DNA of 64,000 bases from Polaribacter sp. Q13 (GTDB lineage: Bacteria > Bacteroidota > Bacteroidia > Flavobacteriales > Flavobacteriaceae), in NCBI RefSeq assembly GCF_016858305.2, contig NZ_CP074436.1, positions 950,001 through 1,014,000 on the forward strand, read 5' to 3'. Shown piece after piece: positions 16,038 through 31,496 of the stretch. The notes under the pieces were generated by a model that saw only the letters and a list, made by a program, of their open reading frames with translations, had not been told where the DNA came from and did not search any database. The translations under genes were made by a program, and so were the position numbers. Each line of letters begins with the position of its first letter. The stretch's first letter is position 1.

Positions 16038-16541
16038 TTATAAAGTTCTAAAATATTCTAAAATTAATCTACTTTCTTTTTCAGTTAAATGTTGATTAGC
16101 CATTGGTACACCCTTAAATTGAATTAACAATGCTTTTGCAATTGGGTCACTTTTAACCATTTCTTCAGGATTTAAAATCATATTCATTACCCATTCTGGA
16201 GAACGTCTATCTAAAATTCCTTCAGGACTAGGTCCTATAAATTTTCTATTAGCCTTATGACAAGAAGAACATTTATTTTTAAATAATAATTTTCCTTCTC
16301 CTGCCATTTTTTGATCTACTGCTCCTAAAGTTAAAGATTTTACAGGACCAATTCCTTTATTACTTAAATCTACTGCAATTGCATTTTCTTTTACAACTTT
16401 CGTTTTTTCTGCTTTTACAGGTGCTTTTTTAACAGCAGCTTTTTTAACAGGCATATCATTTGTAGATTTCTTTTTTTCATTGCCTCCACAACCAACAAAT
16501 AGTAATACGGAAAGCACTGCTACTAAACTTCTTAATTTCAT
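16038..16541 (-). CDS. c-type cytochrome lipoprotein (class I, NosZ-associated type)
   Basis: Mono-haem c-type cytochrome of 167 residues. Lipoprotein signal ends LLFVGC (Cys18); a Lys/Ala/Val-rich linker (about 25-65) leads to the haem motif CSSCH near residue 90, and a Met ligand is probable in GVPMANQHL near residue 149. Cytochromes of this appearance are commonly next to nosZ in Bacteroidota, but no nosZ is in this window. Its promoter has a Crp/Fnr-type palindrome at -41.5 like that of nirK, so it is probably an electron carrier induced with nitrite or NO respiration. Confidence 0.85.
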   Translation of the reverse strand: MKLRSLVAVLSVLLFVGCGGNEKKKSTNDMPVKKAAVKKAPVKAEKTKVVKENAIAVDLSNKGIGPVKSLTLGAVDQKMAGEGKLLFKNKCSSCHKANRKFIGPSPEGILDRRSPEWVMNMILNPEEMVKSDPIAKALLIQFKGVPMANQHLTEKESRLILEYFRTL

Positions 16542-16632: not shown

Positions 16633-16640
16633 CAAATTTA
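16633..16640 (-). promoter_or_regulatory. -7 box of the cytochrome c promoter
   Basis: CAAATTTA on the + strand reads TAAATTTG on the minus strand, an exact TAnnTTTG match. Its centre (16636.5) is 33 bases from the centre of the Crp/Fnr-type box at 16663-16676. Confidence 0.6.
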
Positions 16641-16662: not shown

Positions 16663-16676
16663 ATGACTATTATCAC
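16663..16676 (-). promoter_or_regulatory. Crp/Fnr-type operator (site 1)
   Basis: ATGACTATTATCAC has the TGA-N6-TCA skeleton of Crp/Fnr-family sites and an A run in front, with the centre at 16669.5. With the -7 box centre 33 bases away, it would lie near -41.5, the class II activation position. Sites at 18729, 22607 and 25920 share sequence and spacing. Confidence 0.7.
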
Positions 16677-16811
16677 ATTTAAAAGACTTTTTTCTCTTTT
16701 ATAAAACCAACTATTCCTTTAAAACAAACCCAATATAATCCATTAATAACAAGATTCATATGTAAATTATTCAATTATAGATAAAGAAAACAACTTCGTT
16801 TATAAACATAA
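16677..16811. other. Intergenic stretch between site 1 and the next terminator
   Basis: The 322-base gap between the cytochrome gene and the 598-aa gene holds the cytochrome promoter, the operator and a terminator. This remaining AT-rich part shows no ORF or RNA signature. Confidence 0.5.
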
Positions 16812-16845
16812 AAAAAGTCTCTTTTAATATTAAAAGAGACTTTTT
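16812..16845 (-). terminator. Terminator of the 598-aa protein gene
   Basis: Perfect 34-base palindrome, arms AAAAAGTCTCTTTTAAT / ATTAAAAGAGACTTTTT, 18 bases after the minus-strand stop codon at 16864. Confidence 0.88.
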
Positions 16846-16863
16846 CATGATAAATATACTTCC

Positions 16864-18660
16864 TTATAGATTCTCTATTTCTAAACCTATTAACTCTAAT
16901 TTTTGTTCCTCTATTTTAAGTGAATTTAGCAATGCTTCTTTACTATCAATAAAAGCTTCTTTCTTCGATAAAAACAACTCATTATAATAAGTAATTCCTG
17001 CTTCTAAATTCTTTTTAAACTTTGTTAAAGATCTCAATTGTTTTTTATCAATTATTCCTCTAGCTTCATCTACCTTATCTTGTAAATGAGTTATATAAAG
17101 AGATAATTCTTTTACAAAAACATTAGGTCTATCGTTTCTAGTTATCATATTTTTTCTACCATAAATATGGTCTGTAATATCACCCAAACTCATTATCTGA
17201 TCATAATATGCCATATTAGGTCCAGGGCAAATAGAAACTCCATCGCCCGTTTTCTTTGTACTCATATTATTCAAAATTAGTGTTGATGTACCTAAACCAA
17301 CACAAATACAAGACTTTTCTGTAACCTGATTTATTTTTTTCTCTTTTTCTTCTGAAGAAATTTCTAAAGCATCTATTTCTTTTAATTTTAAATGCTGATA
17401 CTCTCTAGAAGCAGTACATAAACCCGTTTCTTTAAACTCATGATTTAAGGCGATAAATTTATTAGGACAAGAAGTACCTGGTCTTCCTTTGTCTATAAGC
17501 ATTTGTCTTTGAACATCTTTTGTATTTCCTTTTAAGGTATTAAAAGGAACTCCTAAAGGAGAACTGTTACTTAAATATAGATCTTGTTCTTTTGCTTTGG
17601 CTAATTGTGCTACTGTTTTTTTATCTACACTCGTTGCTTCTGGAACCAGTAAAAACGGACTTCCCCACCCTACAGAATCTAATTGGTATTCTTCTAATAA
17701 AAAAGAATGTTCTTCACCTGTACCAACACCACCTTGGGTGGTAATTTTTAATTCTAAATCTTTTGTAGGTACTATTCTATCTGCATCTTGTAAAGCTTGC
17801 AGCATTAATTCTTTTGTTTGACTTATTAAAGTTTCCTTGTTTTCTTTAAATTCTTTTAAAACAGGGCCCATTAAAAAACCTTCTGTTGCAAAAGCATGTC
17901 CTCCACAATTTAAACCAGATTCTACCCTATATTCAGAGACCCATAATCCTTTTTTAGCCAAAAATTTTCCTTGAATAAAAGCAGATCTGTAATCACTTAC
18001 TTTTAAAATAATCTTCTTTTTGATGTTTCCGTTTGTATCAGGATAAAAATCATCAAAATTACTCATGTAAGTATATAATCTAGGATTCATACCTGCAGAA
18101 AGAATTAAAGACGAAGATAATTTACTATTAGAATACCCTCTTAATGCCGCATGTGCATCATTGTATTCTATAGGCAGTAACTCTTGGTCTACATAATTTC
18201 CTTTATCAATTTTGGTCATAATATTAACATCAATACTACCCTTTGATAAATTTTTATTTGCCCAATCTTTAATCTTAGAAAAATCTACCCCATCTTCAGT
18301 CAGTTTTAAAAACTCTTTTTTTAATGAAGAATATTCTGGTAACATGTGAATATAATCCATTAAAGCTTTGCTTTTTTCTGAAGTTATATTTTTAAGTTGG
18401 TTAAATTTAATTTCTGTTTGATCATGTAATAAATCTAAATAAGAAGTAATTCTCTTTGCTCTAAAATCATCTACTTTATCTGAAATTTCTTTATAAGGAA
18501 GTTCAAATTTTTCGCTGTAAATTTTTCGCATTTTTTCTACAAGAATATCATCAACTAAAGAAATAACAGAATCTATACCAAATTGCGCTACTTTTAAAGG
18601 TGAATCTATCGTAAACCCAATTCCCATTACTGGGATATGAAATGAATGTGCGTTTTTCAT
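16864..18660 (-). CDS. Unrecognised 598-aa cytoplasmic protein, possible flavin TIM-barrel, NO-regulon candidate
   Basis: No family is recognised with confidence. There is no signal peptide or membrane segment, so it is probably cytoplasmic. The start (HIPVMGIGFTIDSPLKVAQF, residues 8-27) and the middle (GLNCGGHAF 249-257, QGGVGTGEEH 309-318, VGWGSPFLLVPEA 330-342) resemble glycine-rich loops of FMN TIM-barrel proteins such as nitronate monooxygenases, but this is only a resemblance. Six cysteines (252, 398, 415, 451, 453, 478), four of them between 415 and 478 including CIC, could bind a metal or Fe-S cluster. The C-terminal 90 residues look like a coiled coil. Its promoter carries the same Crp/Fnr box as nirK, and it lies between the cytochrome and the nirK operon, so a role in nitrite/NO metabolism is inferred. 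Confidence 0.75.
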   Translation of the reverse strand: MKNAHSFHIPVMGIGFTIDSPLKVAQFGIDSVISLVDDILVEKMRKIYSEKFELPYKEISDKVDDFRAKRITSYLDLLHDQTEIKFNQLKNITSEKSKALMDYIHMLPEYSSLKKEFLKLTEDGVDFSKIKDWANKNLSKGSIDVNIMTKIDKGNYVDQELLPIEYNDAHAALRGYSNSKLSSSLILSAGMNPRLYTYMSNFDDFYPDTNGNIKKKIILKVSDYRSAFIQGKFLAKKGLWVSEYRVESGLNCGGHAFATEGFLMGPVLKEFKENKETLISQTKELMLQALQDADRIVPTKDLELKITTQGGVGTGEEHSFLLEEYQLDSVGWGSPFLLVPEATSVDKKTVAQLAKAKEQDLYLSNSSPLGVPFNTLKGNTKDVQRQMLIDKGRPGTSCPNKFIALNHEFKETGLCTASREYQHLKLKEIDALEISSEEKEKKINQVTEKSCICVGLGTSTLILNNMSTKKTGDGVSICPGPNMAYYDQIMSLGDITDHIYGRKNMITRNDRPNVFVKELSLYITHLQDKVDEARGIIDKKQLRSLTKFKKNLEAGITYYNELFLSKKEAFIDSKEALLNSLKIEEQKLELIGLEIENL

Positions 18661-18699
18661 TGTTTAATTTAAATGTTTAACTAAATTTAATTAAGCTCG

Positions 18700-18706
18700 C
18701 AATTTA
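18700..18706 (-). promoter_or_regulatory. -7 box of the 598-aa protein gene
   Basis: CAATTTA on the + strand reads TAAATTG on the minus strand, one T short of the TAnnTTTG consensus. Its centre (18703) is 32.5 bases from the centre of the operator at 18729-18742, and it lies 40 bases before the start codon. Confidence 0.45.
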
Positions 18707-18728
18707 TAATTATTTGCATTTTAAAAAT

Positions 18729-18742
18729 ATGACTATTATCAT
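18729..18742 (-). promoter_or_regulatory. Crp/Fnr-type operator (site 2)
   Basis: ATGACTATTATCAT, with ATGA/TCAT half-sites and N6 spacer, 12 of 14 positions shared exactly as ATGACTATTATC with site 1. Centre 18735.5, placed at about -41.5 of the 598-aa gene promoter. Confidence 0.7.
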
Positions 18743-18763
18743 TTTAAAGAAATAAACACTATA

Positions 18764-18800
18764 AAAAAAACTGATTATCAATAAATTAACAATCAGTTTT
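18764..18800 (-). terminator. Terminator of the nirK-nirV-sco-ric operon
   Basis: On the minus strand AAAACTGATT and AATCAGTTTT arms enclose an AT-rich loop and are followed by a T run, about 33 bases after the ric stop codon. Confidence 0.75.
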
Positions 18801-18832
18801 CGGTACGTTTTAGGGGGAATAAGATAATTTTA

Positions 18833-19552
18833 TTAATTAATTTTCTTTTCTAAGAGAATGGCTTTAGGGAATAAAATATTGTTCTCTAAATGTATATGTT
18901 GATGTAAATCTTGCTCAAACTCATCTAACTTAGCATACAAAGCTTTAAACGTATTACACGCTCCTTCTGGTGGTGTATAATTATTAGAAAGTCGTTTTAT
19001 TTCTTTTAAAATATCCCCTGCACTTTCATGTTCTTCTTCCATCATTCTAATAGGGTTATTTACCGTACCAAAGTGTTGTTTTGGTGTTTTTACTCCTTCT
19101 TTCTCTGCCTTTACTAATTGCTTAATAAACGGAAATAATACGTTTTCTTCTTTTTTAAGATGCGCTGCTAATTCATTTGCTACCTCAATAAAAAGTTTAT
19201 TAATTTCTATAACTTCTGTATAATGATGTCCATGTACTTTTGCCACTTTAGCCGCATATTGCAATATTATAGGTGTACTTTCTTGTACATAAGCATGGTG
19301 AATGTTTATAATATGATCTACTAAAAATTCTAGTTTCCAACCATCATAATTATAAGCATTAGAGGTTGGGTTATTTATGTTTAATAGTTCTTGTTCCATT
19401 TCTTCAAAAGAAACATTGTGTTTTTTACATGCTTTTTCTATAGAAATTCCTCCACCACAACAAAAATCTATTCCATGCTTTTTAAACACATCTGCTGTTT
19501 TAATATTGTAAGTTACTACTTCTGCGACTGTATTGTCTTTTGTTATTTTCAT
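18833..19552 (-). CDS. ric: Iron-sulfur cluster repair di-iron protein (RIC/ScdA/DnrN/YtfE)
   Basis: Di-iron protein that repairs Fe-S clusters damaged by nitric oxide or oxidants. The N-terminal ScdA domain has GIDFCCGGG with the Cys31-Cys32 pair; the hemerythrin-like four-helix part carries the histidine/glutamate sets IHHAYVQE (85-91), AHLKKEEN (130-137), EEEHESAGD (172-180) and HIHLENNILFP (219-229). Length 239 is typical. Last gene of the nirK operon, one base after sco, which links it to NO arising from nitrite reduction. A paralogue lacking the Cys pair lies at 25999-26712. Confidence 0.93.
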   Translation of the reverse strand: MKITKDNTVAEVVTYNIKTADVFKKHGIDFCCGGGISIEKACKKHNVSFEEMEQELLNINNPTSNAYNYDGWKLEFLVDHIINIHHAYVQESTPIILQYAAKVAKVHGHHYTEVIEINKLFIEVANELAAHLKKEENVLFPFIKQLVKAEKEGVKTPKQHFGTVNNPIRMMEEEHESAGDILKEIKRLSNNYTPPEGACNTFKALYAKLDEFEQDLHQHIHLENNILFPKAILLEKKIN

Positions 19553-19553
19553 T

Positions 19554-20270
19554 TTAATATGCTTTAATTGTTTCTATAATCTTTTTAATTGTCTCCTTAT
19601 TATCAACACCTAAACCTTCTTGTTGATGTACTAATTCTCCTTCTGGATTAAAAACACTAATAATATTAGAGTGCGAAAAATCTAAAGGTGAAATCTGTTT
19701 GTATTTTACGGCTAAAACATTTGCAAACTCTCTAACACCACTTTCTGTACCTTGTAATAAAGTCCATTGGTTACCGGCAAGAAAATTTTCTTTAGCAAAC
19801 TCTTTCAACTTTTTTGGCGTATCATTTATAGGATCTATACTTACCAAAACAAACTCAACATCATTTTTTAAATCCGTAGGAATTTTTTCTTCAATATTTC
19901 TCATATCTGCTGTTAACCTTGGGCAAGCAGCTTTACACGTAGTATAAATCATTACCATTACTAAAGTTTTACCTTTTAGTTCTTTTAACTCAATTTCCTT
20001 ATCATCTTGCGTATTCCATTTTGAAGTTAGGTTGAAAATAGATTCATCAGAAATCATGGTAGACAAAACCTTTTTTACAATTTTTGAAGTTGGTCTTAAT
20101 TTCATTTCACAAACCGGACAAGAGCCTTCTGCTGCATATACTTTATCTCCTTCACATTTCATGGGACATTGATAAGCTACTGTACTACTTTCTTTAGAGG
20201 CTGCTTTATTACACGAACTTAACGTAGTAATTGTAACCATCAGTACCAATATGTATTTAAATATTTTCAT
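19554..20270 (-). CDS. SCO1/SenC copper chaperone lipoprotein with N-terminal heavy-metal-binding domain
   Basis: Copper-delivery thioredoxin-fold protein. Lipobox LSSC (Cys20) anchors it to the periplasmic face. Residues 34-58 form a small heavy-metal-binding motif with Cys35, Cys39, Cys51 and Cys54 (YQCPMKCEG, GSCPVCEMKL). The SCO domain follows with the copper ligands TTCKAACP (Cys112, Cys116) and DFSH (His200). Fusion of the extra metal domain to SCO is common in Bacteroidota. Placed between nirV and ric in the nirK operon, it most likely supplies copper to NirK, with cytochrome oxidase as the alternative client. Confidence 0.9.
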   Translation of the reverse strand: MKIFKYILVLMVTITTLSSCNKAASKESSTVAYQCPMKCEGDKVYAAEGSCPVCEMKLRPTSKIVKKVLSTMISDESIFNLTSKWNTQDDKEIELKELKGKTLVMVMIYTTCKAACPRLTADMRNIEEKIPTDLKNDVEFVLVSIDPINDTPKKLKEFAKENFLAGNQWTLLQGTESGVREFANVLAVKYKQISPLDFSHSNIISVFNPEGELVHQQEGLGVDNKETIKKIIETIKAY

Positions 20271-20274
20271 TTTT

Positions 20275-21045
20275 CTATTTTTTATTATCTTTTACACATC
20301 TAAAACCTAGGTTTTTCATGGTATATTTTGCTTTTAAACTTCCTCTAATGGCATATCTCATAAAGGCTGCATAATTCATTAAATCCGTTGCGTTTATAGC
20401 TGCACTTCCACAGAATAGATTATTATCTGTATCTACATCTTTTCTAGACTCTCCAGAAATTAACACCGAATTAAAATCGGAAGTCCATTCCCAAACCAAG
20501 CCATGTAAATCATACACGTTCCAATAATTTTTAAACGTAGAACCTATCGTTTGATTAAAGGTTTTAGGTTTTTCATACCACCCCAAAATAAAAGCATTGT
20601 ACTCTTTTTCTTTTCTAGCATCTGGTATTGTTTTATTAGCCATCGCTACATATTCCCATTCATCTACTGTTGGCAACCTTTTTCCTTGACATTCACAATA
20701 TTCTTTTGCAGCAAACCAAGATACTTGGGTTATTGGAGATTGCTCTTTTTGATTTTCACCTAAAATAGTATCCGATTTCCATGCTCGTAAATAGCTTTCA
20801 TCAGCAAATAATTTTATGACTTTACTTTTTTGCCATTTTGGATATTTCTTTACAAAATCTATATACTCTTTATTGGTTACAGGATACACGTCCATTAAAA
20901 AATCATTTATTTTAACTTTCATAGAATCTCTGCCATATAAAGGAATATATTCTCCTCCTTTAATTGATACCATTTTAGATTGACAACTTGTATAAGTTAC
21001 ATTTAGGAGGATTAAAAAAATTGTCAATCTTAAAATAGTTTTCAT
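20275..21045 (-). CDS. nirV: NirV-like FGE-sulfatase (SUMF1) domain lipoprotein
   Basis: Formylglycine-generating-enzyme-like domain protein, 256 residues, with a lipoprotein signal ending TYTSC (Cys21). Domain landmarks are VSIKGGEYIP near 27, VYPVTNKEYIDFV, QVSWFAAKEYCECQGKRLPT, DLHGLVWEWTSD and the terminal NLGFRC. The catalytic Cys pair of true formylglycine-generating enzymes (usually within a SxCHRY-like segment) is not present: the corresponding segment reads NYAAFMRYA. It is therefore probably not a sulfatase activator. Position directly after nirK matches nirV genes of denitrifiers, whose exact role is unknown. Confidence 0.85.
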   Translation of the reverse strand: MKTILRLTIFLILLNVTYTSCQSKMVSIKGGEYIPLYGRDSMKVKINDFLMDVYPVTNKEYIDFVKKYPKWQKSKVIKLFADESYLRAWKSDTILGENQKEQSPITQVSWFAAKEYCECQGKRLPTVDEWEYVAMANKTIPDARKEKEYNAFILGWYEKPKTFNQTIGSTFKNYWNVYDLHGLVWEWTSDFNSVLISGESRKDVDTDNNLFCGSAAINATDLMNYAAFMRYAIRGSLKAKYTMKNLGFRCVKDNKK

Positions 21046-21064
21046 TGAATTTGAATTAAAATTA

Positions 21065-22519
21065 TTAGTGACTGCTTTTTACTTCTTGTACTGTCTTAAT
21101 AGAAACATTAGTTTTATTATTTCCCCAAGAATTATAAACATAAGTTAAAACATCTGCTATTTCTTCTTCAGAAAGTGTTTGTTTGGTCATTACACTATTA
21201 TATTTATTACCATTTACAGTAATTTCTCCTGTTTTTCCATGTAATACAATACCCACAGCTCTTTTAACATCTGCATTTAAATAATCTGATTTTGCTAAAG
21301 GAGGAAATGCATTTGGAATTCCTTGTCCTTCTGCCTGATGACAAGCAAAACAAGTAGTCATGTATAATTGTTTTCCATCTGCTATTTTTTTAGCTAAAGG
21401 CTTTTCTGTAGTACTCACAACTACTTTTTCCTTATTATCATTTGGCATTGTTTGAATTGTACCTCCTTCTGGATGATAAATTCCTTCTTGTTTAATACCA
21501 GAATATAATTTTTTATTCTCTTCTCCTGTTACTTTAAGCATTCCTAAAGCACCTTTATTAAAGGCTCTAAAAATAGCATGATCTACAATAATAAATGTTC
21601 CAGGAACTTCTACTTTAAATTCTACAATTGCTGCACCACCTGAAGGAATTGATGTAGTTTGTACGTTTGTATTGATTAAATCTCCACCTTCTACATGTAC
21701 TTTATCAAAAATTTCTCCAATAACATGAAAAGATGATGTTAAGTTTGGTCCACCATTACCAACAAATAAACGAACCGTTTCTCCTACATTTGCAGTAATT
21801 GCATTATCACCTGTTAAAGCACCTACTTTACCATTAAAGACAACATAATCAGCATCTTCTTTTATCGCCTTTGTCATATCAAAAGGTTGTAATCCTTTTT
21901 CATCCGTAGCTCCTTTTGTGTAAAAATCTCCTTGCATAATGTAATATTCTTTATCTACTTTTGGTAAACCTCCTGCTGGTTCCACTAAAATTAAACCATA
22001 CATTCCGTTTGCAATATGCATTCCTACAGGTGCAGTAGCACAATGGTACACAAACAACCCTGGGTTTAATGCTTTAAAAGAAAACGTTTTATTATGACCT
22101 GGTGCTACAAAAGAAGAAGTTGCTCCTCCTCCAGGACCTGTTACAGCATGCATATCTATATTATGTGGTAATTTATTATCTGGATGATTAGATAATGTAA
22201 ATTCTATTTCATCTCCTACTCTAGTTCTAATAAAACTACCAGGAACAGAACCTCCAAAAGTCCAATAAACATATTTAACACCATCTGTCATTTCACCTTC
22301 TTTTTCAAGAATTTCCATATTAACTAACAGCTTTTTAGCTGTTCTATTTCCTACAGGTTCGGGTACAAAAGGTGGCGAAGTTAATTCCGCATCCATAGTT
22401 CCTTTAATATAAATAGTTGAGCTATCTACCTTTGCTAATTCTTTTTTAGATTCTTCTTTGCAGCTCGTCAGCAATAAGCTTGCAACAATTAATAAAAATA
22501 CTGGTTTTAATAATTTCAT
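21065..22519 (-). CDS. nirK: Copper nitrite reductase with C-terminal cytochrome c domain
   Basis: Periplasmic, lipid-anchored NO-forming nitrite reductase (lipobox LLTSC, Cys20). The two cupredoxin domains (about 55-335) carry type 1 copper ligands His119, Cys160, His168 and Met173, type 2 ligands His124, His159 and His314, and the catalytic pair Asp122 (in HNIDMH) and His265 (in SFHVIG). A mono-haem cytochrome c domain follows at 380-470 with CFACH (390-394) and probable ligand Met444, so the enzyme carries its own electron donor. All key residues are intact. First gene of nirK-nirV-sco-ric; the promoter has a Crp/Fnr-type box at -41.5. Confidence 0.96.
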   Translation of the reverse strand: MKLLKPVFLLIVASLLLTSCKEESKKELAKVDSSTIYIKGTMDAELTSPPFVPEPVGNRTAKKLLVNMEILEKEGEMTDGVKYVYWTFGGSVPGSFIRTRVGDEIEFTLSNHPDNKLPHNIDMHAVTGPGGGATSSFVAPGHNKTFSFKALNPGLFVYHCATAPVGMHIANGMYGLILVEPAGGLPKVDKEYYIMQGDFYTKGATDEKGLQPFDMTKAIKEDADYVVFNGKVGALTGDNAITANVGETVRLFVGNGGPNLTSSFHVIGEIFDKVHVEGGDLINTNVQTTSIPSGGAAIVEFKVEVPGTFIIVDHAIFRAFNKGALGMLKVTGEENKKLYSGIKQEGIYHPEGGTIQTMPNDNKEKVVVSTTEKPLAKKIADGKQLYMTTCFACHQAEGQGIPNAFPPLAKSDYLNADVKRAVGIVLHGKTGEITVNGNKYNSVMTKQTLSEEEIADVLTYVYNSWGNNKTNVSIKTVQEVKSSH

Positions 22520-22576
22520 TTTTTCGGTTTTTTGTTTTTAGTTGATAATAAAAGACCTATTCATCTTTTTATATAG

Positions 22577-22584
22577 CAAAAATA
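22577..22584 (-). promoter_or_regulatory. -7 box of the nirK operon
   Basis: CAAAAATA on the + strand reads TATTTTTG on the minus strand (exact TAnnTTTG). Centre 22580.5 is 33 bases from the operator centre at 22613.5. The start codon of nirK is about 58 bases downstream. Confidence 0.65.
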
Positions 22585-22606
22585 TTAATGATTGTTAATT
22601 AAAAAC

Positions 22607-22620
22607 ATGACATATATCAT
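22607..22620. promoter_or_regulatory. Crp/Fnr-type operator (site 3), between divergent promoters
   Basis: ATGACATATATCAT, ATGA/TCAT half-sites with N6 spacer. The centre is 33 bases from the minus-strand -7 box of nirK and 34 bases from the plus-strand -7 box of the Rrf2 gene, so one site could act at about -41.5 on both promoters. Confidence 0.7.
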
Positions 22621-22643
22621 ACTAAAAGATAATTTTATCTTTA

Positions 22644-22651
22644 TATTTTTG
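22644..22651 (+). promoter_or_regulatory. -7 box of the Rrf2/NnrS-like operon
   Basis: TATTTTTG, exact TAnnTTTG, ending 13 bases before the ATG of the Rrf2 gene. Confidence 0.6.
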
Positions 22652-22664
22652 TATAAAAAATATA

Positions 22665-23099
22665 ATGTTATCAAATTCTAGTAAATACGCAATTAGAGCT
22701 GTACTTTACCTTACCGAAAAAGCATCTAAAGATCTTAAAATTGGTTCAAAAAAAATTGCAGAAGACCTAATAATGCCGGCTCCATTTTTAGCTAAAACAC
22801 TGCAAGAATTAACTAAAAAGAACATCATAAGTTCTGTAAAAGGACCACATGGTGGATTTTATCTATCAGAAACAGATGAAAAAAACTCACTATTTGATAT
22901 TATAGAATGTATAGATGGTGCAGATAAATTTAATGACTGTTATTTAGGTCAATTAGAGTGCAGTGATACCAATCCTTGTGTTGTTCATCATTTATACGTT
23001 CCCTTTAAAAATAAGTTAATTTCTAAGTTAAAAAAGAAAACTATTTTAGAAATGTCTATTGAATATGCTGAAAATAAGAATATTATAAATACTTTATAA
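22665..23099 (+). CDS. Rrf2 family regulator, NsrR-like
   Basis: Winged-helix regulator of 144 residues. N-terminal SKYAIRAVLYLTEKA, MPAPFLAKTLQELTKKNII and the wing VKGPHGGFYLS are typical of Rrf2. Three cysteines in DCYLGQLEC and NPC (about residues 85-100) have the arrangement that ligates an Fe-S cluster in NsrR and IscR. It is divergent from nirK and two bases upstream of an NnrS-like membrane protein, so an NO-sensing NsrR-type role is inferred; IscR or RsrR-type sensing cannot be excluded. Confidence 0.88.
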   Translation: MLSNSSKYAIRAVLYLTEKASKDLKIGSKKIAEDLIMPAPFLAKTLQELTKKNIISSVKGPHGGFYLSETDEKNSLFDIIECIDGADKFNDCYLGQLECSDTNPCVVHHLYVPFKNKLISKLKKKTILEMSIEYAENKNIINTL

Positions 23100-23101
23100 T
23101 A

Positions 23102-24322
23102 ATGGTAAAAGCCAAAACACAAAGTTTTGTGGCACTTATATATTTTTTAATAGCCTCCTCTTTGGGACTCTTATTACGTCTTTTTCCTATTATTGATATA
23201 AATATTGATTATAAATTTTTTGTACATGCACACTCTCACGTGGCTCTTTTAGGTTGGGTATATATAGGATTAACCACATTAATTTTTCATTTATTTATTA
23301 AAGAGGAATCCAAAAAAAAATACACAAAATTATTTTTAATTACTCAAGTTACTATTTTAGGAATGCTATTCAGTTTCCCGATAACGGGTTATGCACTTTT
23401 TTCCATCATTTTTTCTACACTATTTATACTTTGCTCTTATTGGTTTTATGCTTTCTTTAGAAAAAACAATAATTTTAATAAAGACAGTTATGCTTTCAAA
23501 TTTATAAATGCTGCTCTTATTTTTATGATTATTTCTAGCATTGGCCCTTGGGCTTTAGGAATTATTATGAACACCTTAGGAAGCACTTCTCATTGGTATA
23601 AAAATGCTATTTATTTCTATTTACATTTTCAATATAATGGATGGTTTATTTTTTGTTTACTGGGACTTTTTTTCTCTTTTCTAGAAAAAAATAATAAAAC
23701 AATTTTAAAGAATAAAATGATTGTTTTTTTTAGATGGATGGTATTCAGTTGTATCTTTACTTTAGCCTTATCTTTTCTTTGGATAAAACCACCTTTAACT
23801 ATTTATATATTAGCAGCATTAGGTGCAATTACTCAACTAATTACTTTAATACAGTTTTATCAAATAGTAAAGCTTCAAAAAACATTTTTAAAAGAGAAAA
23901 TAACACCTTTTTTCTACCGATTAATCAGCTTTATTTTCGTGTTATTTTCTTTAAAAATTCTGATGCAAACTCTTACAGTAATTCCTTATTTTGCAACCTT
24001 ATCCTATCAAATAAGAGATTTTGTTATAGGATATTTACACCTTGTCTTTTTAGGAATTATTAGTTTAAGTATCTTCTTTTTTTTACATCAAAACAAACTT
24101 TTAAAATTACCAAAAGTTTGGATGTATCTGTACTTATTTGGTTTTATTTTTTCTGAAATATTAATCTTCTACAAAGGTTTTTGCAATTGGCAACAGTTTT
24201 CAATTATCAATAATTATTATACTGTTTTAGTACTCATTTCTGCATTTATGCCAATTGGAGTTTTAGGAATATTTATTTCTAATATAAAACCTACTTTTTC
24301 CACTCTAAAAGAACCTGTCTAG
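23102..24322 (+). CDS. Polytopic membrane protein with His-rich helix, NnrS/haem-copper-like
   Basis: 406-residue integral membrane protein with about 12 hydrophobic segments and little soluble sequence. Helix 2 contains HAHSHVALLGW (His42, His44, His46), and later helices have HFQYNGWF and YLHLVFLG. Histidines on helices in this manner are seen in NnrS proteins and in haem-copper oxidase subunit I-like families. It starts two bases after an NsrR-like gene and is divergent from nirK, which supports an NO-related role. The exact family is uncertain, and no second subunit is present. Its 3' end overlaps the convergent decarboxylase gene by 32 bases. Confidence 0.75.
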   Translation: MVKAKTQSFVALIYFLIASSLGLLLRLFPIIDINIDYKFFVHAHSHVALLGWVYIGLTTLIFHLFIKEESKKKYTKLFLITQVTILGMLFSFPITGYALFSIIFSTLFILCSYWFYAFFRKNNNFNKDSYAFKFINAALIFMIISSIGPWALGIIMNTLGSTSHWYKNAIYFYLHFQYNGWFIFCLLGLFFSFLEKNNKTILKNKMIVFFRWMVFSCIFTLALSFLWIKPPLTIYILAALGAITQLITLIQFYQIVKLQKTFLKEKITPFFYRLISFIFVLFSLKILMQTLTVIPYFATLSYQIRDFVIGYLHLVFLGIISLSIFFFLHQNKLLKLPKVWMYLYLFGFIFSEILIFYKGFCNWQQFSIINNYYTVLVLISAFMPIGVLGIFISNIKPTFSTLKEPV

Positions 24323-25727
24323 CAAATTCTTCACATTGATCTAAAGTATCTGTAACATGTTTTAAAGTAGTTTTAGGATTGATTAAACACATTCTAATTA
24401 CAATCTGGTTCTGTAAAACTGTAGTTACTAAAAATGCTTCTCTAGAATCTACTACTCTCGTAGAAATTTCTTGATTTAAAAGATCTAATTCTTCTTCTGT
24501 TAAGTCTTTATTTAACGGATTATATCTAAAATTAATAATTGCTAAAGTAGCAGGAGAAACAATTTCCCAATTTTTACTTCTTCTAAGAATATCTTCTGTT
24601 TGATCTGCTAAATCTATGTTGTAAGAAATTGCTTTCTTAAAAGCATTTAAACCATATGTTTTTATAGACATATAAAATTTTAAAGCTCTAAACCTTCTTG
24701 TTAATTGAATTCCGTAATCATAAAAATTAATTTCAGACTCATTCCCTTCAATATCTCTTAAATACTCTGGTTTTTCACTAAATGTATTACTTAACCAAGA
24801 GGCATCTTTTACTAATAAACAACCAATTTCATAAGGTTGAAAAAACCATTTGTGAGGATCTACTGTTAAAGAATCTGCACGTTCTATTCCGCGTAAAACT
24901 CTACTACCTTTTTTAGATAAAATTGCGGCAGCACCGTAAGCACCATCTATATGAAACCACAGATTTTCTTTTTCACAAATATCTGCTAAATCATCTAAAG
25001 GGTCTACAGTACCTGTATTTGTAGTACCTGCAGAAGCGATAATACAGAATGGTTTTTTCCCTTCTAACTTATCTTTCGCTATTTCATTTTTAAGTTTATT
25101 CATACTAAACTTAAATTCTAAATCTGTAGGAATTATTTTTATTTGTTCCTTTTTAAAACCTAAAACCCCAATTGCTTTAATATTTGAAGAATGTGCTTGG
25201 TCTGATAAATAAATAATGGATTTAGAAAAATCATCACCACATTTTATTCTTCTAGCCGTAGTTAAAGCTGTTAAATTAGCCATAGAACCACCACTTGTAA
25301 AAATCCCTCCTCCTTTTGTAACAGGAAAATCAAACATTTTTAACAACCAATTTAAAGTAACAATTTCTAGCTCTGCTGCAGCCGGAGAAACAATCCATCC
25401 ACCAGAAAAAATATTAAATCCAGTTGCTAAAGAGTCTGCCATAGTGCTTATAAAGTTACTTGGGCCTGGCACAAAAGAAAAAGATTTAGGATGCGTAGAT
25501 ATATTACTATTTGGTAATACATTTTTAGACACAAAATCTAAAACTTCATCAGCAGGAGTTGCATTATCTGGAGCTTCGCTTAAAAACATTGTATCCATTT
25601 CTTTTCTAGAAGCTTTAATTACTGGTTTTTTACTTTCTTCTTCTATATAATGGTCTACAATAATATCTACTATTTTATAGCCATAAGACTGCATTTCTTC
25701 TTTTGTTAAATAAAAAGGTGATTTCAT
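24291..25727 (-). CDS. PLP-dependent group II decarboxylase (aromatic amino acid type)
   Basis: Pyridoxal-phosphate enzyme of the AADC/glutamate decarboxylase family, 478 residues, cytoplasmic. Motifs: GGIFTSGGSMANLTAL (about 138-153), IASAGTTNTGTVDP (about 230-243), HIDGAYGAA (about 257-265) and the PLP-binding lysine in VDPHKWFFQPYE (about 290-301). Resemblance is to aromatic-L-amino-acid decarboxylases; the substrate is not determined. It lies between two NO-related units but shows no shared operator. Its stop codon region overlaps the NnrS-like gene by 32 bases tail to tail. Confidence 0.88.
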   Translation of the reverse strand: MKSPFYLTKEEMQSYGYKIVDIIVDHYIEEESKKPVIKASRKEMDTMFLSEAPDNATPADEVLDFVSKNVLPNSNISTHPKSFSFVPGPSNFISTMADSLATGFNIFSGGWIVSPAAAELEIVTLNWLLKMFDFPVTKGGGIFTSGGSMANLTALTTARRIKCGDDFSKSIIYLSDQAHSSNIKAIGVLGFKKEQIKIIPTDLEFKFSMNKLKNEIAKDKLEGKKPFCIIASAGTTNTGTVDPLDDLADICEKENLWFHIDGAYGAAAILSKKGSRVLRGIERADSLTVDPHKWFFQPYEIGCLLVKDASWLSNTFSEKPEYLRDIEGNESEINFYDYGIQLTRRFRALKFYMSIKTYGLNAFKKAISYNIDLADQTEDILRRSKNWEIVSPATLAIINFRYNPLNKDLTEEELDLLNQEISTRVVDSREAFLVTTVLQNQIVIRMCLINPKTTLKHVTDTLDQCEEFARQVLLEWKK

Positions 25728-25919
25728 TAAATTTTAATTTTGCTGCAAATTACATTAACTTAAAATTATATTAATCATAGAAACCAAATTATATCTATAA
25801 TAATAAATATATTTCTTCCGGTCTTAAACTTTATTAAAATGTAATTTATTCATCATTTAACGCTTACTTTTCCGAAAATCATATCATTTTTACAAAAAAA
25901 ATTATAATTATTTAAATTA

Positions 25920-25933
25920 GTGACAAAAGTCAT
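25920..25933 (+). promoter_or_regulatory. Crp/Fnr-type operator (site 4)
   Basis: GTGACAAAAGTCAT, with TGAC/GTCA half-sites and TGA-N6-TCA skeleton. Centre 25926.5 is exactly 33 bases from a weak -7 box CAATTTTG (25956-25963), the same geometry as sites 1-3, upstream of the second RIC-like gene. Confidence 0.6.
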
Positions 25934-25998
25934 TTTTTATTCTTAAAAACTACATCAATTTTGTAATAAATTCTAAGTCTCTTATTGTGATAACTCTA

Positions 25999-26712
25999 AT
26001 GAATAAAAGTGTTGCTACTATTGTTATAGAAAACATTAATACTGCAGCTGTTTTAAAAAAATATAAAATAGATTTTAGTATTCATGGAAACATGCTTTTG
26101 TATAAAGCTTGTGAAGAAAAAAACACCAATTTAAAACATATTATTAGAGATTTAAAAGCGGTGAATAATAAGGTTTATTATTTAAAAGATTATAATTCTT
26201 GGAAATTAGATTTCTTAATAGATTTTTTAATAAAAATACAACACGAATACAAAGAAGAAAATACACTATTCTTAAAAGAATATGGTAAAAAAGTAGCTAA
26301 TATTTATGGGCAAGAATATAAAGAACTCATAGAAATTAATCTTTTAATACAAGGAATAGCAGATGGTATTCTTGAGCACATGAAAAATGAAGAAAGCACT
26401 ATTTTTCCATATATTAAGAAACTTATAAATGCTAAAAATAAAAAGATTGTAATTAATACTAGTAATTCACCTTTAAATGAACCTATTGAAGTTATAGAAG
26501 ATGATCACGAAAAAGTAAGTAAAACTTTTAAGAAAATTGCTGAATTAACTAATAATTACAAAATACCAGAAAATGCTTGCATCTCTTTTAAAGTACTGTA
26601 TCTTAAGCTACAACAGTTTGAAGAATTATTAAATAATCATATTCATATAGAAAATAATATATTATTTCCGAAAGCAAAAAAGTTAGAACAATCTTTACTT
26701 TTCCTTTCCTAA
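25999..26712 (+). CDS. RIC/ScdA-like hemerythrin protein lacking the Cys-Cys pair
   Basis: 237-residue paralogue of the ric product at 18833. The N-terminal domain aligns (MNKSVATIVIENINTAAVL) but the GIDFCCGGG loop is replaced by KIDFSIHGN, so the two cysteines are gone. The hemerythrin-like metal ligands are kept: IQHEYKEEN, LEHMKNEES, EDDHEKVSK and NHIHIENNILFP. It probably still binds a di-iron centre but may have lost the cluster-transfer or thiol function. A GTG 12 bases upstream is also in frame; the ATG at 25999 fits the paralogue better. The Crp/Fnr-type box upstream indicates co-regulation with nirK. Confidence 0.85.
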   Translation: MNKSVATIVIENINTAAVLKKYKIDFSIHGNMLLYKACEEKNTNLKHIIRDLKAVNNKVYYLKDYNSWKLDFLIDFLIKIQHEYKEENTLFLKEYGKKVANIYGQEYKELIEINLLIQGIADGILEHMKNEESTIFPYIKKLINAKNKKIVINTSNSPLNEPIEVIEDDHEKVSKTFKKIAELTNNYKIPENACISFKVLYLKLQQFEELLNNHIHIENNILFPKAKKLEQSLLFLS

Positions 26713-30824: not shown

Positions 30825-31496
30825 TTATGCTATTTTTTGAAGTAATCTTATTTCTTTTCTATTAAAAGTGATAATATTTTCCTCTTTTAATTCATTCATT
30901 AATACATTTAAGTTAGATCTAGAAGTACCAATTAATGAAGCTATATCTTTTTGTGTATAAGGATGTTCTATTATTTTATCTCCTGTTTTTTCACAATCAT
31001 GGCCAAACTCTTCACATAATTCTTTCATAAATTCTAAAAACCTAGTTTTAGAATCTTTAAATAAAATTAATTGTAATCGTCTTTCTAGCTTTTTAAAACG
31101 AAGTCCTAAAAACTTATAAATTTTTAAACTAAAAGTTTTATTATCACGCATTAAATCGTGCATAGTGTCTACTCCTATCGGACAGATTGAAGTAGAAGCA
31201 TCCACCGATTGAGCGAATTCATTTCTTGTTTCTTCACCTAAAATGGCTTTTTCTCCAAACAACTCTCCTTTTGTTAAAATAGCTTTCACTACCTCCGTAC
31301 CATCTTCATTATAGTACCCTAACTTAACTTTTCCTTTTTCTATAAGGTAAATTTTACTTGCCGCGTCTTCTTCAAAATAGATGTAATCACTTTTTTTATA
31401 AGCATCAAAAGAATGCCCCTTTTTATATTCTTTAAATTTATGCGGACAAAGTAAGTTGAACAGGTTTACGTTATCAAAAAACCATAAGTTATTCAT
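30825..31496 (-). CDS. Crp/Fnr family transcriptional regulator
   Basis: 223-residue regulator with an N-terminal cyclic-nucleotide-binding-type barrel (IYLIEKGKVKLGYYNEDGTE near 49-68, GELFGEKAILGEE near 77-89) and a C-terminal winged helix. The helix-turn-helix reads QKDIASLIGTSRSNLNVLM (182-200). Compared with CRP (SRETVGRIL), the first Arg is retained but Glu181 is Ser and Arg185 is Val, so it should prefer a different half-site from TGTGA. There is no N-terminal Cys cluster as in Fnr, so an oxygen-sensing Fe-S role is unlikely; the signal is unknown. The TGTTA-N6-TAACA palindrome just downstream is the best operator candidate. Confidence 0.9.
   Translation of the reverse strand: MNNLWFFDNVNLFNLLCPHKFKEYKKGHSFDAYKKSDYIYFEEDAASKIYLIEKGKVKLGYYNEDGTEVVKAILTKGELFGEKAILGEETRNEFAQSVDASTSICPIGVDTMHDLMRDNKTFSLKIYKFLGLRFKKLERRLQLILFKDSKTRFLEFMKELCEEFGHDCEKTGDKIIEHPYTQKDIASLIGTSRSNLNVLMNELKEENIITFNRKEIRLLQKIA

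What the first reader, a model, noticed from the sequence alone, without database searches (positions are those of the whole stretch)
16663..25933. One Crp/Fnr-type box with fixed promoter spacing marks a nitrite/NO regulon
Four palindromes with TGA-N6-TCA skeleton (16663-16676, 18729-18742, 22607-22620, 25920-25933) each lie with their centre 33 bp (32.5-33) from the centre of a -7 box, near position -41.5. The downstream genes are a cytochrome c, an unrecognised 598-aa protein, nirK-nirV-sco-ric and a second RIC-like protein. Constant geometry is stronger evidence than the short motif alone. The regulator is probably an Fnr/DNR-type protein encoded elsewhere.
Basis: partly seen in the sequence, partly recalled or inferred. 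Interest (0 to 1): 0.8.

Follow-up and report, generated by a model that had tools for sequence, protein, structure and literature searches.

The report
Fnr-type oxygen-switch promoters controlling nirK
In this marine Polaribacter, one short DNA signal at an exactly fixed distance from the promoter probably marks genes switched on when oxygen runs low, including the nitrite reductase operon, and a second conserved signal beside nirK may add a nitric-oxide-linked brake.

Summary
Each of the four palindromes lies exactly 22 nt from an 8-nt box (centres 33 bp apart); with the published flavobacterial box position this is -41.5, the class II activator position. Genome-wide, 40 sites fit with at most one mismatch against 5 for the reversed pattern, and 21 of 42 free-gap hits fall at this one spacing. 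The same geometry precedes nirK in 70 of 80 named loci. The likely activator is an Fnr-type protein at 3.593 Mb beside ccoI-hemN-ccoNO; the window's own Crp-family protein lacks the TGA-reading residues. Other Crp/Fnr sub-regulons share the spacing, so it does not identify the regulator. New here: (i) a second palindrome, AAAGAY-N6-RTCTTT, near the start of nirK and in the divergent rrf2 promoter, probably the Rrf2 operator; (ii) the 598-aa gene's box is a conserved TAnnTTGY, like an alternative-sigma motif of Flavobacterium psychrophilum; (iii) a site facing a short terminator-ended stretch without a gene. Nothing was tested at the bench.

The parts
16663..16676 (-). Fnr-type site 1 (GTGATAATAGTCAT), centre -41.5 of the cytochrome c gene
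16633..16640 (-). -7 box TAAATTTG of the cytochrome c gene
   Evidence: 22 nt from site 1
16038..16541 (-). 167-aa cytochrome c
   Evidence: Pfam PF00034 E 2e-6; 3 of 4 homologs in nirK loci have the site with an exact box (gaps 22, 22 and 21), the fourth was a partial match and not scanned
18729..18742 (-). Fnr-type site 2 (ATGATAATAGTCAT), upstream of the 598-aa gene
18699..18706 (-). promoter box TAAATTGC; fits TAnnTTGY (SM5 class), not TAnnTTTG
   Evidence: 15 of 20 site-bearing promoters of this family have TAnnTTGY, all 20 at gap 22, 2 of 22 have no site; SM5 definition PMC9723704
16864..18660 (-). 598-aa protein, no Pfam or NCBIfam match; remote PfaD/enoyl-reductase-like barrel by predicted fold, six cysteines invariant in 44 aligned sequences
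22607..22620 (.). Fnr-type site 3, shared: gap 22 to nirK on -, gap 23 to rrf2 on +
22577..22584 (-). -7 box TATTTTTG of the nirK operon
22551..22568 (.). second palindrome AAAGATGAATAGGTCTTT (read on -), about +5 to +22 of nirK; putative Rrf2 operator
22625..22642 (.). second copy AAAGATAATTTTATCTTT in the spacer of the rrf2 promoter
22644..22651 (+). -7 box TATTTTTG of rrf2-u406
21065..22519 (-). nirK, copper nitrite reductase with C-terminal cytochrome c domain
   Evidence: TIGR02376 E 2e-105, Pfam Cytochrom_C
20275..21045 (-). nirV-like, FGE-sulfatase domain
   Evidence: PF03781; match in 80 of 80 nirK loci
19554..20270 (-). sco (SCO1/SenC)
   Evidence: PF02630; match in 77 of 80 loci
18833..19552 (-). 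ric, iron-sulfur cluster repair protein with CC motif
   Evidence: TIGR03652 E 5e-74
22665..23099 (+). Rrf2-family regulator with C-x6-C-x5-C
   Evidence: PF02082, TIGR00738; cysteine motif in 34 of 35 homologs read (30-71% identical), the other is truncated
23102..24322 (+). 406-aa protein, probably membrane-bound, weak COX1 match below the Pfam cut-off
25920..25933 (+). Fnr-type site 4 (GTGACAAAAGTCAT)
25956..25963 (+). -7 box CAATTTTG (1 mismatch) of ric2
25987..26712 (+). ric2, RIC paralog below the RIC model cut-off that lacks the CC pair (DFSIHG instead of DFCCGG)
   Evidence: TIGR03652 177 bits, cut-off 204.7; similar loss in L063
30825..31496 (-). Crp-family regulator in the window, not the likely regulator of these sites

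Best explanation
The four palindromes are class II binding sites (centre -41.5) of an Fnr-type, probably oxygen-sensing Crp/Fnr activator, most likely the protein encoded at 3,592,546-3,593,229 beside ccoI, hemN and ccoNO. Under low oxygen its dimer would bind ATGAY-N4-RTCAT and recruit RNA polymerase to the box 22 bp downstream. It would turn on cbb3 oxidase and central-metabolism genes, and in this window the nirK-nirV-sco-ric operon, the divergent rrf2-u406 pair, a cytochrome c, ric2 and the 598-aa flavoenzyme-like gene. At nirK a second layer is superimposed: an Rrf2-type protein binds AAAGAY-N6-RTCTTT just after the transcription start and in the rrf2 promoter, and would lift repression when its cluster senses NO or nitrite. 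Shown: sites, spacing, conservation, neighbouring genes, second palindrome. Inferred: binding, oxygen sensing, direction of regulation, the NO signal.
For: Geometry: 21 of 42 hits at one spacing; by a simple reading-frame caller 35 of 40 one-mismatch sites are intergenic, 13 of 13 exact ones too, 12 of the 13 with a gene downstream on the same strand. Conservation: in 80 named nirK loci an exact TAnnTTTG stands at gap 22 in 41, and at one place in total for all other gaps from 5 to 44; 70 of 80 at gap 22 with at most one mismatch within 3.5 kb. Negative control: sco, inside the operon, has 0 of 67 (10 partial matches not scanned). Regulator: solved relatives by sequence are 2gau_A (Crp/Fnr family, best, E 1e-25, without the N-terminus) and then entries named FNR type regulator, aligned from residue 3 or 4 (E 7e-23); best NCBIfam model is FNR, below cut-off; helix T-E-S-A-I-R keeps Glu and Arg. 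The fnr-ccoI intergenic region has the same site in 26 of 30 loci, own included; on the ccoI side the best box is at gap 22 in most, usually with one mismatch. Genomes with a good Fnr ortholog (45% identity or more) have the nirK site at gap 22 in 41 of 44, the others in 1 of 6 (Fisher 1.5e-4). Rrf2 layer: 39 of 73 nirK-type sites have the palindrome within 60 nt after the box, 26 of the 39 at 7-8 nt; it is found in 8 of 8 loci with adjacent rrf2 (7 of which supplied the consensus), in 19 of 72 others (L064, also in the alignment, among them) and before 8 of 27 rrf2 homologs lying elsewhere; the own-genome norB operon has one. Literature: cbb3 oxidase is induced by oxygen limitation in F. psychrophilum (PMC9723704, passage).
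Against: The Fnr candidate lacks the third N-terminal cysteine of the FNR pattern (Asn in the alignment); which residues would hold a cluster is open. Three other proteins in the genome (L006, L007, L008) also keep the TGA-reading residues. L088 has the nirK site but no Fnr match in its 1.7-Mb genome; L113 has the ortholog and no site. The co-occurrence test is confounded by relatedness, its identity threshold was set after seeing the list, and 30 of the 80 genomes were not tested. Seven of 80 loci have no site (three of these have only 1.2-1.5 kb of upstream sequence). ric does not carry the site reliably when it lies outside the nirK operon: 4 of 26. The signal is nearly lost at two mismatches. 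The Rrf2-type palindrome is absent after 34 of 73 nirK-type sites, and its own-genome copies in the stretches read include two inside genes.
Confidence: 0.72

Rival explanations
1. A dedicated NO/nitrite-responsive DNR/NnrR-like activator (for example the Crp-family protein L007 at 2.801 Mb) binds these sites.
For: nirK, two RIC-type genes and a Rrf2 pair are among the targets; in 19 further loci the site lies 0.7-2.2 kb in front of nirK, and in the two of these whose preceding gene I read it is a COX1-superfamily protein that I take for a NO reductase subunit. L007 keeps Glu and Arg in its helix.
Against: The same site precedes ccoNO, pta-ackA, pckA and pfkA-gapA, and no such site was seen in front of the own-genome norB operon.
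Confidence: 0.11
2. One of the two receiver-Crp fusion proteins (L006, L008; each next to a likely sensor kinase gene, in clusters with universal stress or similar genes) drives nirK.
For: Both keep Glu and Arg in the helix and lie among sites with the same 22-nt gap.
Against: The L008-cluster sites all have G or C in the inner four bases (7 of 7) while none of 73 nirK-type sites does. L006 sites are harder to separate (2 of 6 with inner G/C).
Confidence: 0.11
3. The palindrome is itself the operator of the divergent Rrf2 regulator and no Crp/Fnr protein is involved.
For: In the window the rrf2 gene is divergent from nirK and shares the palindrome.
Against: Only 8 of 80 nirK loci have a detected rrf2 within 400 bp yet 70 have the palindrome; the palindrome sits before unrelated metabolic genes; a different palindrome accompanies rrf2.
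Confidence: 0.04
4. The motif-box coincidence is chance in an AT-rich genome.
For: The motif is short and two of the four boxes are inexact.
Against: speak strongly against it.
Confidence: 0.01

Closest known systems
FNR regulons of proteobacteria (E. coli FNR, Paracoccus FnrP, Dinoroseobacter FnrL; features recalled, abstracts of PMC4771820 and PMC5398030 seen in the listing)
   Same: TGA-N6-TCA site, class II position, targets such as cbb3 oxidase and nitrite reductase, regulator with N-terminal cysteines
   Different: Outer bases mostly A..T instead of T..A; the promoter is the Bacteroidetes TAnnTTTG box; third N-terminal cysteine not in the canonical place
DNR/NnrR denitrification regulons (Rodionov et al. 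2005, PMC1274295; passages seen)
   Same: FNR-like palindrome before nirK
   Different: DNR consensus CTTGATnnnnATCAAG; here ATGAY-N4-RTCAT, and the targets reach beyond denitrification
Neisseria norB-nirK region with FNR and NsrR sites (described in PMC1274295, passage)
   Same: FNR activation plus an Rrf2-family (NsrR) site at nirK
   Different: Other operator sequence (that paper gives gATGyAT-N5-ATrCATc for enterobacterial hcp); the Rrf2 protein here is far below the NsrR model cut-off (22.5 of 182 bits)
SM5 promoter class of Flavobacterium psychrophilum (PMC9723704, section 15 read)
   Same: TAnnTTGY box at the position of the -7 box
   Different: There tied to LPS, amino-acid scavenging and gliding genes; the words Fnr and Crp do not occur in that paper's main text. 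Here paired with an Fnr-type site at gap 22

Membership tests
FNR-type regulon | TGA-N6-TCA palindrome at -41.5 of a main-sigma promoter | tested here: met
   box position -12 to -5 from PMC9723704; start sites themselves not mapped
FNR-type regulon | regulator with Glu and Arg in the recognition helix (positions 181 and 185 of CRP) | tested here: met
   GTATESAIR (positions assigned by eye); residue-base rule for 180 and 181 in PMC1274295
FNR-type regulon | four cysteines for a [4Fe-4S] cluster at canonical places | tested here: inconclusive
   C4, C7 and C106 align with cysteines of a solved FNR type regulator, the third N-terminal Cys is Asn; C4, C7, C29, C53, C59 and C106 present in 30 of 30 loci read, own included
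FNR-type regulon | targets include cbb3 oxidase and fermentation genes | tested here: met
   (by site position only)
FNR-type regulon | oxygen-dependent activity | not testable with these tools
   needs expression or binding data
FNR (NCBIfam PRK11161) | score above the curated cut-off | tested here: not met
   107 bits, cut-off 228; it may work like FNR but is not filed under that model
DNR/NnrR NO regulon | targets confined to denitrification and NO genes, NO reductase included | tested here: not met
   central metabolism included, no site seen in front of the own norB operon
NsrR | score above the NsrR model cut-off | tested here: not met
   22.5 bits, cut-off 182
NsrR | three cluster cysteines of Rrf2 Fe-S regulators | tested here: met
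   C-x6-C-x5-C in the window protein and in 34 of 35 homologs, the other truncated
SM5 promoter | TAnnTTGY box at the -7 position | tested here: met
   window and 15 of 20 site-bearing promoters of the 598-aa family, own included
SM5 promoter | read by an alternative sigma factor | not testable with these tools
   the sigma factor is not named in the section read
RIC (ric2, 25987-26712) | TIGR03652 cut-off and CC pair of the ScdA_N domain | tested here: not met
   177 of 204.7 bits; DFSIHG instead of DFCCGG

The most novel reading that the evidence does not exclude
One Fnr-type activator, always 22 bp upstream of the box, works with two promoter classes in the same regulon: the main-sigma box TAnnTTTG (nirK, ccoNO, pta-ackA and others) and a TAnnTTGY box, thought to belong to an alternative sigma factor, at the 598-aa flavoenzyme-like gene. 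The activator would then serve two RNA polymerase holoenzymes from an identical position, putting the uncharacterised enzyme under low oxygen plus a second, sigma-borne signal.
Probability: 0.3. Interest if true: 0.7.

Novelty: new member of a known kind. Interest (0 to 1): 0.52.

Why it matters
I found no description of an FNR-type regulon in Flavobacteriaceae in the listings (open-licence PMC only, so this is weak evidence of absence). The site, its exact spacing and a conserved Fnr candidate give a predicted low-oxygen regulon that can be tested directly, and suggest how nirK is coupled to cbb3 respiration in these marine bacteria. The Rrf2-type palindrome gives a second handle on NO control. 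The TAnnTTGY case makes the question of which sigma factor reads that box experimentally accessible at one conserved promoter.

Tried and rejected
Window Crp-family protein (30825-31496) as the regulator: set aside on its recognition helix. L010 and L011 as regulators: both have Arg at position 180 (assigned by eye), which by the rule in PMC1274295 goes with G before TGA (only 4 of 73 nirK-type sites have G); L011 also has Val for Glu181, and GTAAC-N4-GTTAC-like sites at gap 22 lie next to it and 10 and 30 kb away, in line with that rule; these come from a list that as a whole is hardly enriched.

ric as a context control: at first I took it that ric carries the site whenever it leads its own unit. 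A recount does not bear this out: 1 of 20 copies directly behind sco and 4 of 26 elsewhere have it, 3 not scanned.

Genome-wide search for further Fnr + TAnnTTGY promoters: only the 598-aa gene matches exactly; at one mismatch there is no enrichment over the reversed pattern (6 against 19), so the pairing rests on conservation at one gene family.

Rfam on the short-RNA candidate: 11 matches up to E 1, none above its gathering score. Covariance model R1 in 58 same-genus genomes: strong hits only in the three genomes it was built from; the other matches have E 0.0009 or worse (stricter filters).

Structure of the 598-aa protein: mean pLDDT 68.6, so the PfaD-like match (E 2e-7, TM-score 0.31) is a lead only.

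Literature searches that listed no paper on this site in Flavobacteriaceae: (listings only, apart from passages of PMC1274295, PMC8510549 and PMC9338935, and passages, outline and section 15 of PMC9723704).
Full report

Observation. Two boxes are exact TAnnTTTG, one has one mismatch, and one (TAAATTGC) has two. The four 14-mers exceed chance (0 of 100 shuffles reach 4), as does their coupling to a box (maximum 2 in 200 simulations against 4).

With at most one mismatch, 40 sites fit against 5 for the reversed pattern; with two mismatches the signal is nearly lost (119 against 96). Of the 40 sites, 35 are intergenic by a simple reading-frame caller and 5 lie inside reading frames, as many as the reversed pattern finds; all 13 exact sites are intergenic and 12 have a gene downstream on the same strand.

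Conservation. In 80 named nirK loci (the best 80 of 432 relatives) an exact TAnnTTTG stands at gap 22 in 41, and at only one other place in gaps 5-44. Allowing one mismatch and looking 3.5 kb upstream, 70 of 80 have gap 22, three more have 21 or 23, and seven have none. In 19 of the 70 the site lies 0.7-2.2 kb in front of nirK; in the two such loci where I read the preceding gene it is a COX1-superfamily protein, which I take for a NO reductase subunit. As a negative control, sco inside the operon has no site with a good box in 67 loci scanned (10 partial matches left out). ric is no support: 1 of 20 copies behind sco and 4 of 26 elsewhere have the site.

Position. PMC9723704 places the main-sigma box at -12 to -5 in F. 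psychrophilum (section 15). A 22-nt spacer then puts the palindrome at -48 to -35, centre -41.5, the class II position of FNR and CRP (recalled).

What the regulon is. Genes behind gap-22 sites, named by family models, include ccoNO, pta, ackA, pckA (box with one mismatch), pfkA and gapA; fumC and a copper-type ATPase beside fnr that I call ccoI have the site one base further off. This looks like a low-oxygen programme; a nitrite/NO label fits only part of it. The NorB-like protein of the own genome (Pfam NorB domain) has no such site in front of its operon; one lies downstream, before a 443-aa gene.

Which regulator. Seven Crp/Fnr proteins pass the HTH cut-off. Rodionov et al. (PMC1274295, passages) tie residue 180 to the third base and 181 to the sixth base of the site. 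By eye: L009 (the window's own) lacks Glu181 and Arg185; L010 and L011 have Arg180; L005, L006, L007 and L008 have Glu181, Arg185 and no Arg180, as nirK-type sites need. L005 sits beside ccoI, hemN and ccoNO, aligns with solved FNR-type regulators from residue 3-4 on, though the single best solved match is another Crp/Fnr protein, 2gau, and scores best with the FNR model though below cut-off. The region between it and ccoI has the same site in 26 of 30 loci, own included. Of 50 of the 80 nirK genomes tested, 41 of 44 with an ortholog of at least 45% identity have the gap-22 site, against 1 of 6 with only weaker or no matches. L008's neighbourhood sites have G or C in the inner four bases (7 of 7); none of 73 nirK-type sites does. 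I therefore name L005, at about 72% for the whole model.

What the spacing does not show. Sites of other sub-regulons have the same gap. Spacing points to class II activation; the letters of the site point to the regulator.

The second layer at nirK. An alignment of nine nirK upstream regions, eight with a divergent rrf2, shows two further palindromes. The consensus AAAGAY-N6-RTCTTT, at most one mismatch, is present in 8 of 8 loci with adjacent rrf2, in 19 of 72 others, and before 8 of 27 rrf2 homologs lying elsewhere; seven of the first eight and one of the 19 (L064) helped to define it. In 39 of 73 nirK-type promoters it follows the box within 60 nt, at 7-8 nt in 26 of the 39, so from +4 or +5 to +21 or +22; in 12 of 73 a copy lies upstream of the Fnr-type site. 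In 1.30 Mb of loci there are 48 exact copies: 20 upstream of nirK, 10 of rrf2, 1 of ric, 1 of the cytochrome c, 16 elsewhere; by their coordinates nine of those 16 lie 1.8-2.2 kb upstream of nirK, where longer operons start. In the own-genome stretches read (313 kb plus the window) there are six: two here, one before the cupin-norB operon, one near 3.145 Mb, two inside genes. An Rrf2 repressor is the economical reading; that it senses NO is inference from the family (PMC9338935, passages) and context. The protein scores far below the NsrR cut-off.

The odd box. The 598-aa gene's promoter does not have a decayed box. In 22 upstream regions (14 same-genus loci, own included, and 8 nirK loci), 20 have the Fnr-type site, all at gap 22; 15 of the 20 have TAnnTTGY and none an exact TAnnTTTG. 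TAnnTTGY is motif SM5 of F. psychrophilum, attributed there to an alternative sigma factor that is not identified in the section read. No other place in the own genome has the exact pair.

The 598-aa protein. 7999 homologs among the candidates scored, no Pfam or NCBIfam match; six cysteines invariant in 44 sequences. The predicted model is modest and its best solved matches are PfaD and related enoyl reductases. I treat it as a possible flavin-barrel oxidoreductase with a possible metal or cluster site.

Verdict. The kind is known; the family-specific sites, the Rrf2-type palindrome and the TAnnTTGY pairing are the new parts, all awaiting bench tests.

Noticed in passing
Own genome C1:1651328-1651471 (L053 6329-6472 +): An exact Fnr-type site with box TAAATTTG and no gene on that strand. 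A terminator-like hairpin begins about 60 nt after the box and its T run ends about 93 nt after it, at the 3' end of convergent hemF (fold z -4.9). Site and transcript region are present in 3 of 30 same-genus hemF loci read, own included. Candidate low-oxygen small RNA.
   Followed up: partly
Own genome C1:3137109-3167654: A Crp/Fnr paralog with Val in place of Glu181, with GTAAC-N4-GTTAC-like sites at gap 22 next to it and 10 and 30 kb away; fits the residue-base rule of PMC1274295.
   Followed up: partly
Own genome C1:2836500-2856499 and 4192000-4218000: Two clusters, each with a receiver-Crp fusion protein beside a likely sensor kinase gene and with their own variants of the site at gap 22; the first also has universal stress proteins.
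   Followed up: partly
window 25987-26712: RIC paralog without the cysteine pair of the ScdA_N domain, kept under the Fnr-type site; a similar protein is in L063.
   Followed up: partly
window 23102-24322: 406-aa protein with a weak COX1 match, paired with rrf2; homologs in 33 of 80 nirK loci.
   Followed up: no
Own genome C1:3145101-3145144: An Fnr-type site whose spacer overlaps a copy of the Rrf2-type palindrome, before a small protein with an HCDGKCH motif and a TonB-receptor-like gene; possibly copper supply.
   Followed up: no
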